From the NCBI GenBank assembly GCA_015062235.1, contig SUUZ01000001.1, positions 248,001 through 312,000 of the forward strand: a stretch of 64,000 nt of DNA. The letters are read 5' to 3'. This DNA is from Alphaproteobacteria bacterium (GTDB lineage: Bacteria > Pseudomonadota > Alphaproteobacteria > RF32 > CAG-239). The translations under genes were made by a program, and so were the position numbers. A model generated the notes under the pieces. The model was given only the letters and a program-made list of their open reading frames with translations, was not told the DNA's origin and ran no database searches. This document shows, in pieces, positions 47,875-54,724 of the stretch (its first letter is position 1; each line of letters starts with the position of its first letter).

Positions 47875-50574
47875 TTAGGCAGATTTACGGCAGCAACAGC
47901 CACTTTCATTTCCACCAACTGTACGATCAGCACCAAATTTAACTGCAGCTTGAGCAGCAGCCAAACGAGCAACTGGTACACGGTATGGAGAACAAGATAC
48001 ATAATCCAAACCAACTTTATGGAAGAACTCAATTGATTTTGGATCACCACCATGTTCACCACAAACACCCAAGTGAATATTTGCGTTTGTTTCACGACCT
48101 TTACGGCAAGCACGAGCAACCAATTTACCAACACCATCAACATCAATAGAAGCAAATGGATCAGCAACATAAACACCCTTAGCTCTATATTCATCCAAAA
48201 TAGCGCCTGTATCGTCACGGCTCATACCCAAAGTTGTCTGAGTAAGGTCATTTGTACCAAAACCAAAGAATGCAGCAGATTCTGCAATTTCTTCAGCCAT
48301 CAAAGCAGCTCTTGGTAACTCAATCATTGTACCAACGATATAGTTAACAATTGCACCTTTTTCAGCGAATACTTGTTTAGCTGTTGTATCGATAACATCT
48401 TTAACAATATCCAACTCTTTCTTAGAACCTGTTAATGGAACTTCAATTTCAGGAGTTACTTTAACACCTTCAGCTTGGCATTCCAAAGCAGCTTCTAAAA
48501 TAGCACGAGCCTGCATTTCTGCAATCTCAGGATATGTAACAGCCAAACGACAACCACGATGACCCAACATTGGGTTAGCTTCATGTAAAGCAGCTGCACG
48601 TGTCTTAACATGTTCTAATGTTACACCCAATTTATTAGCCAATTCTTGCATCTCAGCTTCTGTGTGAGGCAAAAATTCATGCAATGGTGGATCTAACAAA
48701 CGAACAGTAACAGGTAGACCATCCATAATTTTGAACAAATCTTTGAAGTCTTGCTTCTGGTATGGCAATAATTTAGCCAAAGCCTGACGACGACCATCTT
48801 CATTATCAGACAAAATCATAGCACGCATATCACCGATTCGGTTAGCATCAAAGAACATATGCTCTGTACGAGCCAAACCAATACCTTGAGCACCAAAATC
48901 ACGAGCTGTTTGAGCATCTTTTGGAGTTTCGGCATTAGCACGAACTTTCAATACTCTGATTTCATCAACCCAACTCATCAATTTACCGAAGTTACCTGTA
49001 TTTGTATCAGCCTTAACTGTAGGAATTTCACCTTCAATAATCTGACCTTTAGCACCATCTAATGATACCCAATCACCTTCTTTAATAACGATACCAGACT
49101 TAGTTGTCATAGTTTTGTTAGCATAGTTAATTGTAATATCGCTAGAACCAGAAACGCAAGGAGTACCCATACCACGAGCAACCACAGCAGCGTGAGAAGT
49201 CATACCACCACGAGCAGTAATCACACCTTGAGAAGCATGCATACCACCAATATCTTCTGGAGATGTTTCATTACGAATCAAGATAACTTTTTCGCCTCTG
49301 TTAGCCCAAGCTTCAGCATCTTCTGCATTAAATACTGCACGACCAACAGCAGCACCAGGAGAAGCTGGCAACCCTGTAGCAATAACATTTTTCTTAGCTT
49401 TAGGATCCAACATTGGGTGTAATAATTGGTCTAATTGATCAGCACCAACTCTCATAATAGCTTCTTCTTTAGAAAGCATGCCTTCTTCAACCATTTCAAC
49501 AGCCATCCTTACAGCTGCTGCTGCAGTTCTTTTACCATTACGGCATTGCAACATCCAAAGCTTTCCATGCTCAATGGTAAATTCCATATCTTGCATATCT
49601 TTATAGTGAGCTTCTAATTTATCTCTAACATCAACTAATTCTTTATAGAGGTGAGGCCATTTTTCCTCCAAAGAAGTACCATCACCCTTAGAAGCCATTG
49701 GTTGTGGAGTACGAATACCAGCAACAACGTCTTCACCTTGAGCATTAATCAAATATTCACCATAATAAACATTTTCACCTGTCGCAGGGTCACGAGAGAA
49801 GCAAACACCAGTAGCACAATCATCACCAGCATTACCAAACACCATAGTTTGAACGTTAACCGCTGTACCCCAGTCACCAGGAATATTATTCAATTTACGG
49901 TAAGTAATAGCGCGGTTAGCCATCCAAGAACCAAACACAGCACCAATACCAGCCCACAATTGATCCCATGGATCTTGTGGAACAACTTTACCTAATTTTT
50001 CACCAATAGCTTTATATTGGCTAACCAATTCTTTCAAATCTTCGGCTGTCAAATCTGTATCAGAAACATAACCTTTAGATTTTTTCATATTTTCCAAAGC
50101 TTCTTCATACAAATCAATATCTGCACCTAAAACAACGTCTGAGAACATTTGCAAGAAACGACGATAAGAATCATAAGCAAATCTTTCAGAACCCGAAGCA
50201 TTAGCCAGAGCTTTAACTGTTTCATCATTCAAACCTAAGTTCAAAACTGTATCCATCATACCAGGCATTGAAACTCTTGCACCTGAACGAACTGAAAACA
50301 GCAATGGATTACTTGCATCAGCAAATTTCTTGCCCATAATACCTTCAACATAAGCTACAGCCTGTCTAACTTGATCTTTCAAATCAGCAGGATATGTCTT
50401 ATTGTTGTCATAGTAATATGTACAAACTTCAGTAGTAACTGTAAATCCTGGAGGAACAGGTAAACCAACTGTATTCATTTCAGCTAAGTTGGCACCTTTA
50501 CCACCAAGGAGATTACGCATGCTAGCATCGCCTTCAGCGCTGCCATTTCCAAATGTATAAACCCATTTACTCAT
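47875..50574 (-). CDS. ppdK: Pyruvate, phosphate dikinase
   Basis: LLGGKGANLAEMNTVGLPVPPGFT, GGMTSHAAVVARGMGTPCVSG, GIGLARTEHMFF, FFGFGTNDLTQTTLGMSRDD, LGVCGEHGGDPKSI; AAGGAG SD. Confidence 0.98.
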   Translation of the reverse strand: MSKWVYTFGNGSAEGDASMRNLLGGKGANLAEMNTVGLPVPPGFTVTTEVCTYYYDNNKTYPADLKDQVRQAVAYVEGIMGKKFADASNPLLFSVRSGARVSMPGMMDTVLNLGLNDETVKALANASGSERFAYDSYRRFLQMFSDVVLGADIDLYEEALENMKKSKGYVSDTDLTAEDLKELVSQYKAIGEKLGKVVPQDPWDQLWAGIGAVFGSWMANRAITYRKLNNIPGDWGTAVNVQTMVFGNAGDDCATGVCFSRDPATGENVYYGEYLINAQGEDVVAGIRTPQPMASKGDGTSLEEKWPHLYKELVDVRDKLEAHYKDMQDMEFTIEHGKLWMLQCRNGKRTAAAAVRMAVEMVEEGMLSKEEAIMRVGADQLDQLLHPMLDPKAKKNVIATGLPASPGAAVGRAVFNAEDAEAWANRGEKVILIRNETSPEDIGGMHASQGVITARGGMTSHAAVVARGMGTPCVSGSSDITINYANKTMTTKSGIVIKEGDWVSLDGAKGQIIEGEIPTVKADTNTGNFGKLMSWVDEIRVLKVRANAETPKDAQTARDFGAQGIGLARTEHMFFDANRIGDMRAMILSDNEDGRRQALAKLLPYQKQDFKDLFKIMDGLPVTVRLLDPPLHEFLPHTEAEMQELANKLGVTLEHVKTRAAALHEANPMLGHRGCRLAVTYPEIAEMQARAILEAALECQAEGVKVTPEIEVPLTGSKKELDIVKDVIDTTAKQVFAEKGAIVNYIVGTMIELPRAALMAEEIAESAAFFGFGTNDLTQTTLGMSRDDTGAILDEYRAKGVYVADPFASIDVDGVGKLVARACRKGRETNANIHLGVCGEHGGDPKSIEFFHKVGLDYVSCSPYRVPVARLAAAQAAVKFGADRTVGGNESGCCCRKSA

Positions 50575-50757
50575 GGTAAATATAGCTCCTTTCGTAAGCT
50601 TTTGTTAAAACGTATGTCAAGACCAACAAAAAGCCCCGACACAAAATTGTCGGAGCTAGGTTATATCAACTTTTACGATTCTACAAGAAAAATATGTATA
50701 ATATTATGTTTTTGAACAACTAAATTTCAAAATTCACTACCTCAAAAACAAAAAAAA

Positions 50758-50790
50758 GTGGCTTGAGTTATAAAAACTAAAACCACTCTA
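50758..50790 (-). terminator. Putative terminator of orphan gene 50795-51301
   Basis: AGTGG-TT-AGTT...AACT-AA-CCACT imperfect hairpin, T-run on minus strand. Confidence 0.55.
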
Positions 50791-50794
50791 ACCC

Positions 50795-51301
50795 CTATTG
50801 AGATTGTTTTTTTCTGAAAGCAGTTATACTCTCACGAATTACTGCTTTGTTTGTTATTTGCTGCTCTTTTCTAGCAGCTTCAGCGCTCGCTTTGCATTTA
50901 GCATCCTCTGCACGCTTGAGTTCATCGAAATAGCTCTGCGGTCGAGCTCCGTGCTCCTCCAATAAAGAGGCAAGGTCCGGACTAATCCTTCTAGCTATGT
51001 CTAGAGGTCTAACATTAACAATGCTATAAGCATCATCATAGATGTCCCCTATCCTAACCTTTTCTGGAATCGCCAGATTCAAATTTCCCCCTTGCTGAAT
51101 GTAATCAAAAATCACATCCAGATCCAGTTTACTGTAACTGCATACTTCACCAAGCACCATCTTAAATCTAATCGTATCTAGATCCTTCAATGCTTTCTCA
51201 AACTGCTCTGCAGTAACATTCTTTTCCGCAATCGTCTCATTTTCTGCGCTACTGTTCTTCACGCCGAAAAATCTTTCAAAAAACCTTTTCATAATTTTCA
51301 C
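50795..51301 (-). CDS. Orphan hypothetical protein with a single degenerate ankyrin-like repeat; alternative start at 51292
   Basis: RPLDIARRISPDLASLLEEHGARP resembles one ankyrin repeat; N-terminal RFFGVKNSSAEN shared with 52466-52822. Confidence 0.7.
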   Translation of the reverse strand: MKIMKRFFERFFGVKNSSAENETIAEKNVTAEQFEKALKDLDTIRFKMVLGEVCSYSKLDLDVIFDYIQQGGNLNLAIPEKVRIGDIYDDAYSIVNVRPLDIARRISPDLASLLEEHGARPQSYFDELKRAEDAKCKASAEAARKEQQITNKAVIRESITAFRKKQSQ

Positions 51302-51335
51302 AATAAATATTTAAATAATAAATTTCAAACTTTCA

Positions 51336-52268
51336 CTACAAACTCTTTCCCTTAATCTTTTTAGATAAATTTCTAGCTTTTTTCATTTTTTCTTTGTCAA
51401 TTGTATTTGCAAGTTTTATATAACGAGCTTTAATTTCCAGAGCAAATTTTTTCCAATCAGTATTTTCATCAAAACCTAAGGCATATACATTTTTTCCATT
51501 TTTACGATAAGAGTTGGCAATCTCATCCCAGTTTTCAACACCATTCTTATTGTACAAAATTATCTGCGGTGTATTAGGAAAACACGTCAACATATACCAA
51601 GTATGTGTTCCTGCAATTCCTACTGACATATCAAGCTTGTTATACATATTTAAATATTGGTTATGAGAAACACCTCTAATTCCATAAACATGTCTATCTT
51701 CTTTTTCTCCTGGAACATACATACCAAAATCAATAGCAACATCTTTCACATTCTCAACATCATTAACTTTATGAAAGTGTTGTCCTAAAATATATCGATT
51801 ACCTTCTTCATTCTTAAAAAAATTAAAAGCACTTAATGGAACTGTCTGTTGCTGAGCTGTTATTCCACATTTCCCATCAGAAATAAGCTTTTGAGGAATT
51901 AATAAAATATTTCTAGTGTCACTTTTAATTCCCGCAAATCTTGGTAAATCAGTTTGAATTTGAGGTCTTAATCTAGTTTGTGCAAATCGTTCCCACATAG
52001 TAGCATCAATTCTCTCGTCTAACAATTCCTTACGCCAAGAAATACCCTGCTTTGTAAACTTCTCTCTTTCATCCCATGTTGCAACTTTTATATTAGGAAA
52101 CATAAGAGAAAAACGCTCATATATCTCCATAACCTCTTTTTCAAAATCATCCTCATTATCTTTTTCACTAAAAACTACTGGTTCCTGACTGTAGGTTGCC
52201 GCGAAATTAAGCTCCATAAATGCATGGCCTCCAACTGATGTTACTAAAGCATATTTCTTGTTTTCCAT
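51336..52268 (-). CDS. Hypothetical protein (310 aa), possibly glycosyltransferase-like
   Basis: Intact ORF; MSVGIAGTHTWYMLTCFPNTPQIILYNK suggests glycosyltransferase-like fold; weak. Confidence 0.6.
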   Translation of the reverse strand: MENKKYALVTSVGGHAFMELNFAATYSQEPVVFSEKDNEDDFEKEVMEIYERFSLMFPNIKVATWDEREKFTKQGISWRKELLDERIDATMWERFAQTRLRPQIQTDLPRFAGIKSDTRNILLIPQKLISDGKCGITAQQQTVPLSAFNFFKNEEGNRYILGQHFHKVNDVENVKDVAIDFGMYVPGEKEDRHVYGIRGVSHNQYLNMYNKLDMSVGIAGTHTWYMLTCFPNTPQIILYNKNGVENWDEIANSYRKNGKNVYALGFDENTDWKKFALEIKARYIKLANTIDKEKMKKARNLSKKIKGKSL

Positions 52269-52434
52269 AGCAACCTCACAATTTTCACCCTAACCATAAA
52301 ATAATTATATCATATTTACCCCCCCTCCGCGCAATTCCAGGTAATACGTTGAAAATACACAATATTTTATCAAAAAAAACACCATTCTGAACAATCTAAA
52401 AGGTAACATTATACCGCAAAAAAATAAAAAAAAA

Positions 52435-52462
52435 GCCCGAGTCTTATAAAACTCGAGCTATA
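52435..52462 (-). terminator. Terminator of orphan gene 52466-52822
   Basis: GCcCGAGT-cttataaa-ACTCGaGC, T-run on minus strand. Confidence 0.7.
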
Positions 52463-52465
52463 AAA

Positions 52466-52822
52466 CTACTCATCACACAATCTAGAAAACAAACCTCTAG
52501 TTTCCAAATCGCAACACCATTTGTAAAGAGGAGCACACATATACCACTCATTAGCAACCTTATCGTATCGATAGAAAAAATCATCGTAAGACAACTTACC
52601 ATACTCCTTTTGATAACGTTTTACCAAAACTTTGAGTGTATCATGACGAGCATCACTTAAAGCTTGTGAAATATCAGAGAGTAAAGCATTCTGAGGGGTA
52701 TTAAAAAACTCCTCTTTAGTCTTAACCTTTTCTACAATAGGTTGCTCAACTTTAACCGCCTTCTTCACATTTTCAGTGCTACTGTTCTTCACACCAAAAA
52801 ATCTTTTCCAAAAATCCCTCAT
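52466..52822 (-). CDS. Orphan hypothetical protein (118 aa) sharing N-terminal cassette with 50795-51301
   Basis: Intact ORF; RFFGVKNSSTEN near N-terminus; own promoter and terminator. Confidence 0.7.
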   Translation of the reverse strand: MRDFWKRFFGVKNSSTENVKKAVKVEQPIVEKVKTKEEFFNTPQNALLSDISQALSDARHDTLKVLVKRYQKEYGKLSYDDFFYRYDKVANEWYMCAPLYKWCCDLETRGLFSRLCDE

Positions 52823-52854
52823 ATTATATATTAATTATAATTCATGTAACCATG

Positions 52855-52883
52855 CTTATACCATAAAAAAACAAGCTTGTAAA
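52855..52883 (-). promoter_or_regulatory. Putative sigma-70 promoter TTTACA-N17-TATAAG for 52466-52822
   Basis: minus strand: TTTACA (52883-52878), TATAAG (52860-52855). Confidence 0.6.
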
Positions 52884-52958
52884 TAAATTATTCAAACGAA
52901 AAAATCAGATAAGTCTTCAAAAAGATGAATGGCAAGATTAATAGAAGCAAAAGAAGAC

Positions 52959-53003
52959 GGCTGAAAATTTTAGCGCAGATTTAACCTGTGTTAATTTTCA
53001 GCC
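52959..53003 (-). terminator. Long hairpin, likely ettA terminator
   Basis: GGCTGAAAATT...AATTTTCAGCC (11 bp) with further internal pairing; T-rich on minus strand. Confidence 0.65.
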
Positions 53004-53044
53004 TTTCGCACTTTTTGTGATTAGTATTCCGTTATACAATCTTT

Positions 53045-54724
53045 TTACTGGCGAGTAAGAGTTTTATGCTTGCTCCTATGCGGACGAAGTGCGTCTTCAC
53101 CGAGGCGACGAACTTTGTCCTTTTCATATTCTTCAAAGTTGCCTTCAAACCATTCTACATGACCTTCATCTTCATAGGCAAGAATGTGCGTTGCAAGTCT
53201 ATCCAAAAACCAACGATCGTGCGAAGTAACAAGTACACAACCAGGATATTGCATAATGCCCTCCTCCAATGAACGAAGTGTATCAACGTCCAAATCATTT
53301 GTTGGTTCGTCCAAAAGAATAACATTAGCACCTTTTTTAAGCATTTTAGCCAAATGAACACGGTTACGCTCACCACCTGAAAGTTGACCGACTTTCTTTT
53401 GTTGATCACTTCCTTTAAAATTAAATTGTCCAACATAAGCACGTGACGGAACTTCACCTTTACCAATCTTAATCATATCCAAACCGTCAGAAATTTCTTC
53501 CCAAACATTTTTATCAACAGACAATTCATCACGAGATTGATCAACATATCCCAAATCCACGGTATCACCAAGTCTGATTTCACCACTATCTGGTTGTTCT
53601 TGACCAGTAATCATTCTAAACAACGTAGTTTTACCAGCACCATTTGGACCGATAATACCAACAATAGCCCCTTTAGGAATTTTGAAAGACAAATTGTCTA
53701 TCAACACTCTATCACCATACCCTTTAGTAATATTTTTGGCTTCAATAACCAAATCTCCAAGTCTTTCCGTCATTGGAATATGAATATTAGCTGTCGTAAT
53801 TTTGTCTTTTGTAGACTGTGCCAACAATTCATCATAAGCATTGATACGAGCTTTTGATTTAGCCTGACGAGCCTTAGGATTCTTTTGAATCCATTCTAAT
53901 TCATTGGCTAAAACTTTCTGGCGAGCAGTTTCTTCTCTAGCTTCTTGCTCAAGGCGTTTTTGCTTTTGCTCAAGCCAAGACGAATAATTTCCTTCATAAG
54001 GAATACCTTGTCCTCTATCAAGTTCCAAAATCCAACCTGTAACATTATCCAAGAAATAACGGTCGTGAGTAACCATCACAACAGTACCTTTATAATCTTT
54101 TAAGTGACGTTCTAACCAAGCAACCGATTCGGCATCCAAATGGTTGGTCGGTTCGTCCAACAACAACATATCAGGTTGTTGCAACAACAAACGGCACAAC
54201 GCTACACGACGTTTTTCACCACCTGATAATTTAGTAACATCAGCATCAGATGGCGGACAACGAAGAGCATCCATGGCAATTTCAATAGTACGTTCTAGAT
54301 CCCAACCATTACAAGCGTCTATTCTTTCTTGCAGCTCAGCCTGACGTTCAATAAGTGCGTTCATTTCTTCATCACTCATAGGTTCGGCAAACTTCATCGA
54401 AACTTCTTCAAATTCTTTTAATAAATCTCTAGTTTCACCCAACCCGTCCATAATGTTTTCCATAACATTTTTTGTGGGATCTAACTTTGGCTCTTGTTCC
54501 AAATATCCTACTTTAACACCTTCAGCAGCCCAAGCCTCACCATTAAATTCTTTATCAACACCTGCCATAATTTTTAACAATGTAGATTTACCGGCACCAT
54601 TAACACCTAAAACTCCAATTTTGGCTCCAGGTAAAAACGATAAAGTAATTCCTTTAAATAGCTCTTTTCCGCCAGGAAAAACTTTTGTAAGATTTTGCAT
54701 AACAAATACATATTGTACAGCCAT
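53045..54724 (-). CDS. ettA: Energy-dependent translational throttle protein EttA (ABC-F)
   Basis: Two ABC domains: [83 protein letters not shown]. Confidence 0.96.

What the first reader, a model, noticed from the sequence alone, without database searches (positions are those of the whole stretch)
50795..52822. Two orphan proteins share a conserved 5' coding cassette (RFFGVKNSS[A/T]EN) fused to unrelated C-terminal parts
51239-51274 and 52769-52804 (minus) encode RFFGVKNSSAEN and RFFGVKNSSTEN. The DNA is also close: AGATTTTT[C/T]GG[C/T]GTGAAGAACAGTAGC[G/A]C[A/T]GAAAATG, 4 differences in 37 nt including a 15-nt identical core. The downstream protein sequences are dissimilar: one has an ankyrin-like repeat, the other is unknown. 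A third unexplained gene lies between them. This looks like 5'-end shuffling of a modular N-terminus, possibly a targeting or secretion signal. It may mark a lineage-specific effector-like family.
Basis: partly seen in the sequence, partly recalled or inferred. Interest (0 to 1): 0.62.

Follow-up and report, generated by a model that had tools for sequence, protein, structure and literature searches.

The report
Neighbouring small proteins share one N-terminus
Two neighbouring genes in a small-genome gut bacterium begin with nearly the same 18 amino acids and then encode two different small helical proteins, one of them ankyrin-like; the shared start is real but was found on only four genes, and is most likely a short membrane-binding tag rather than a widely shuffled secretion signal.

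Summary
Observation confirmed. Genes A (50795-51292, -) and B (52466-52822, -) share a 62-nt, 82% identical segment anchored at the start codon (13 of 18 residues identical); nothing downstream aligns. Among the 5' ends of 64 window genes this pair is the clear outlier. The shared start is native to A's family: small single-ankyrin-repeat proteins, patchy in the genus (10 of 35 genomes at E below 1e-10), where relatives in G001 and G005 keep FFGAKHS and IFGVKQS starts. B's body is not detectably ankyrin; it matches the first half of a rare two-domain family (basic/aromatic start, helical domain, one ankyrin-like repeat). So A and B carry one start on bodies of two families, which fits local 5'-end exchange or differential domain loss. 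Across 152 genomes the start was found on only four family genes, three of them ankyrin, so a widely reused cassette is not supported. In three ankyrin relatives a transmembrane helix followed by basic residues takes the same place, so a cytoplasmic membrane tether is my best guess; an effector or secretion role has no support. The genes fill an accessory slot between ppdK and ettA that is empty of them in three relatives.

The parts
50795..51292 (-). Gene A, 165 aa, single-ankyrin-repeat family
   Evidence: ORF (start placed at ATG 51292); family by profile
51226..51285 (-). Shared 5' segment in A
   Evidence: blastn 51/62 nt with B, E 2e-13
50939..51214 (-). Ankyrin-like region of A, about residues 27-118
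   Evidence: alignment A6; profile hits solved ankyrins, best E 5.7e-12
50804..50938 (-). Charged C-terminal helix of A, about residues 119-163
   Evidence: single-sequence model, the only confident part of A
52466..52822 (-). Gene B, 118 aa
   Evidence: ORF
52756..52817 (-). Shared 5' segment in B
   Evidence: blastn with A
52544..52702 (-). Helical domain of B, about residues 41-93, related to the first half of the two-domain family
   Evidence: 15.6 bits without the first 18 residues, 0 of about 2000 shuffles as high; helices 43-92 at pLDDT about 80
51336..52268 (-). Middle gene, 310 aa, accessory family of unknown function
   Evidence: relatives in 8 other genomes of the genus, 40-48% identical
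47875..50574 (-). Flank: ppdK (pyruvate phosphate dikinase, named from sequence)
   Evidence: ORF; found in 33 of 35 genomes
53045..54724 (-). Flank: ettA-like ABC-F protein (named from sequence)
   Evidence: ORF; next to ppdK in G016, G012, G031

Best explanation
A and B belong to two accessory families of small helical proteins in gut Alphaproteobacteria, and members of both families often open with a short basic/aromatic segment. Shown: A's segment is native to its ankyrin family; B's body belongs to a different, two-domain family; the A and B starts are more alike than either is to any relative. Inferred: an exchange of about 50-60 nt at the 5' end (gene conversion or recombination between genes 1.5 kb apart) gave one gene the start of the other, most likely A to B. 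Inferred mechanism: the segment lies on the cytoplasmic face of the inner membrane and tethers the protein there, doing the job of the transmembrane helix found in other ankyrin relatives, while the ankyrin-like or B-type domain binds a partner.
For: Start-anchored match. G001 and G005 ankyrin relatives share the start. B body matches the two-domain family and not the ankyrin profile. A/B starts 13 of 18 identical against 8-9 of 18 with G001 (sequences). G030, G032 and G074 relatives have a transmembrane helix there, followed by basic residues. Clustering of the two families in G074.
Against: Codon identity only weakly above expectation (P 0.03). Hydrophobic moment not significant for A or B (p 0.09, 0.16). 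No relative of B with another start is known, so the exchange is not seen directly. No partner known.
Confidence: 0.5

Rival explanations
1. Differential domain loss. A and B descend from one two-domain gene (start, B-type domain, ankyrin-like repeat) by tandem duplication; A lost the B-type domain, B lost the ankyrin half, and the start was kept.
For: Two-domain proteins with all three parts exist in G004, G090, G074 and G040; B looks like such a protein cut after the first domain.
Against: The start on A is on ankyrin-only genes in G001 and G005 too, so it predates the A/B pair; two-domain starts resemble A and B much less.
Confidence: 0.27
2. Ordinary tandem paralogs whose bodies diverged beyond recognition while the start stayed conserved.
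For: In G066 a tandem ankyrin-like pair has a leader far more conserved than its coding part.
Against: B's body scores -1.2 bits on the ankyrin profile, like shuffles, and matches another family.
Confidence: 0.12
3. Secretion or translocation signal of effector-like proteins, reassorted between effectors.
For: Short N-terminal segment on different bodies; ankyrin bodies are common in effectors (general knowledge).
Against: Found on four genes only; relatives carry a transmembrane helix followed by basic residues instead; no secretion system was examined.
Confidence: 0.06
4. Chance or composition-driven resemblance of basic/aromatic starts.
For: Loosely similar starts are common in these families.
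Against: E 2e-13 for the two regions, about 1e-6 when I scale it by hand to the genome against itself; the next 5'-end pair is far weaker.
Confidence: 0.03

Closest known systems
Ankyrin-repeat proteins (Pfam Ank)
   Same: A's family profile hits solved ankyrins, best E 5.7e-12
   Different: About one repeat, a charged C-terminal helix, and no single-sequence Pfam hit for A
Terminal reassortment of type III effectors (Stavrinides, Ma and Guttman 2006, PLoS Pathog 2:e104; known to me from its citation in PMC3136466; the paper itself is not held)
   Same: A 5' segment shared by genes with different downstream parts
   Different: Here one pair only, no evidence of secretion, and the start is native to one of the families
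Short membrane-targeting segments of cytoplasmic proteins such as MinD and FtsA (general knowledge)
   Same: About 10-18 residues, basic plus bulky hydrophobic, at one end of the protein
   Different: Here N-terminal, amphipathicity statistically weak for A and B, untested by experiment

Membership tests
Ankyrin-repeat proteins (gene A) | Sequence profile matches the ankyrin helix-turn-helix | tested here: met
   Family profile, 14 members, against PDB: best E 5.7e-12, many ankyrins
Ankyrin-repeat proteins (gene A) | Several stacked repeats | tested here: not met
   About one repeat in alignment A6, so A is called ankyrin-like
Ankyrin-repeat proteins (gene B) | Body matches the ankyrin family profile | tested here: not met
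   -1.2 bits, 59% of shuffles as high
Two-domain family of G090/G004 (gene B) | Body matches the first domain | tested here: met
   15.6 bits without the first 18 residues, shuffle maximum 8.2
Two-domain family of G090/G004 (gene B) | Ankyrin-like second domain present | tested here: not met
   B ends after the first domain
Reassorted effectors with a shared N-terminal signal | Same start on many unrelated bodies | tested here: not met
   Four genes in 152 genomes, three of one family
Reassorted effectors with a shared N-terminal signal | A secretion system that recognises the start | not tested
Peripheral membrane-targeting segment | Significant helical hydrophobic moment | tested here: inconclusive
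   A 0.70 (p 0.09), B 0.62 (p 0.16); two relatives p 0.001 or less
Peripheral membrane-targeting segment | Membrane localisation lost when the segment is removed | not testable with these tools
   Needs tagged proteins in cells

The most novel reading that the evidence does not exclude
The first 50-60 nt form a small exchangeable 5' module that recombines between neighbouring fast-evolving genes and puts different helical binding domains on the same membrane tag in accessory slots of gut Alphaproteobacteria.
Probability: 0.18. Interest if true: 0.5.

Novelty: new member of a known kind. Interest (0 to 1): 0.3.

Why it matters
It describes two uncharacterised, patchily distributed small-protein families in reduced-genome gut Alphaproteobacteria and a likely case of 5'-end exchange between neighbouring genes. 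If the tether reading holds, it is a simple example of one family swapping a transmembrane helix for a peripheral membrane tag.

Tried and rejected
Close relatives of B among named species genomes: none. B in phage records: chance-level matches only. Pfam, NCBIfam, PHROGs and PADLOC gave nothing convincing for A, B or the middle gene. Single-sequence structure models were weak (B mean pLDDT 64, A 46) and the B model had no PDB match better than E 0.24. A G090 gene with IFGAKKS near its start (L166) is a 264-aa protein with no recognised link. A regulatory or RNA-level reading was dropped: sequence upstream of the two start codons is not shared and codon identity is barely above expectation. 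A short segment of A (about residues 31-64) that by eye resembles B was not significant.

Full report
Setting. The window is part of a 1.43-Mb genome in a genus of 35 and a family of 152 held genomes. Two relatives that could be matched to named records are Alphaproteobacteria assemblies from deer caecum, so this is most likely a reduced-genome gut alphaproteobacterium. The finding covers three minus-strand genes: B (52466-52822, 118 aa), a middle gene (51336-52268, 310 aa) and A (50795-51292, 165 aa), between ettA-like 53045-54724 and ppdK 47875-50574.

Observation. The peptides RFFGVKNSSAEN and RFFGVKNSSTEN are at the stated places. blastn between the two regions finds one real match, 51/62 nt, E 2e-13, beginning just inside each start codon. 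With A's ATG at 51292 the proteins are in the same register and 13 of the first 18 residues agree. Past residue 18 there is no significant similarity (shuffle p 0.32; 0.10-0.33 under three gap costs). Among the 5' ends of 64 window genes this pair stands alone. The motif occurs twice in the genome.

What A is. A's body belongs to a family of small proteins with one ankyrin-like repeat and a charged C-terminal helix. A profile search of the genus gives hits in 13 of 35 genomes, 10 of them at E below 1e-10; relatives outside the genus occur in G074 and G066. A profile of 14 members hits solved ankyrins at 5.7e-12. The start is native here: G001 has MKKILKKFFGAKHSTTEK and G005 MNLLNKIFGVKQSNSRRK. 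Other members start with a transmembrane helix followed by basic residues (G030, G032, G074), which by the positive-inside rule (general knowledge) puts the body in the cytoplasm.

What B is. B's body does not match the ankyrin profile (-1.2 bits). It matches the first half of 216-254-aa proteins of G090, G004, G074 and G040. A profile from G090 and G004 scores 15.6 bits on B without its first 18 residues; the best of about 2000 shuffles scores 8.2. Those proteins have a short basic/aromatic start, a helical domain like B's and one ankyrin-like repeat; the last part of their profile matches ankyrins. In G074 such a gene lies between two ankyrin-only genes. B is thus a one-domain relative that lacks the ankyrin half. 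No other one-domain B was found in the family of 152 genomes.

How widespread is the start. A degenerate pattern for this start was run on 152 genomes and 65 loci were read. Only A, B, G001 and G005 have it at the start of a family gene; nearly all others are in short chance frames, and one lies near the start of an unrelated-looking 264-aa gene of G090. The pattern needs near-identity, so more diverged starts would be missed, and many family members do have looser basic/aromatic starts. A cassette on many bodies is not supported.

Slot. ppdK is conserved but the DNA before it varies. In G016, G012 and G031 ettA and ppdK are neighbours without A, the middle gene or B; in other genomes different genes fill the place. 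The middle gene has relatives in eight other genomes and lies next to an ankyrin-like gene in G032.

Mechanism. Shown: one start, bodies of two families, accessory location. Inferred: 5' exchange between neighbours, preferred over domain loss because the start also sits on ankyrin-only genes in other genomes and because A and B starts resemble each other more than any two-domain start. Inferred: membrane tether at the cytoplasmic face plus a helical binding domain. The hydrophobic moment alone is not significant for A or B. Effector or secretion roles are unsupported, though secretion systems were not searched for.

Judgement. A sound, modest observation: lineage-specific small proteins with a shared probable membrane tag, made of known kinds of parts.

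Noticed in passing
L106:2986-4251; L108:6-1157; L056, L057, L058: An ELM1-like gene (PF06258, E 5e-11 for the G001 copy) lies next to the middle-gene relative in G032, G015, G031 and G012 and next to the A relative in G001. The recurring neighbourhood suggests a functional link.
   Followed up: partly
L073:930-1720 (G066): Two tandem ankyrin-like genes have a leader of about 90-100 nt that is nearly identical, while the coding parts are much more diverged. Either the leader is converted between copies or the coding parts evolve unusually fast.
   Followed up: partly
window 50575-53044 and L076, L083-L105: The stretch upstream of ppdK varies strongly between species of the genus: empty, large lipoprotein-like genes, or other orphans.
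   Followed up: partly
window 51293-51332 and 52823-52862: A, B and their relatives have AT-rich upstream sequence without a clear Shine-Dalgarno motif, whereas ppdK has AAAGGAG before its start.
   Followed up: no
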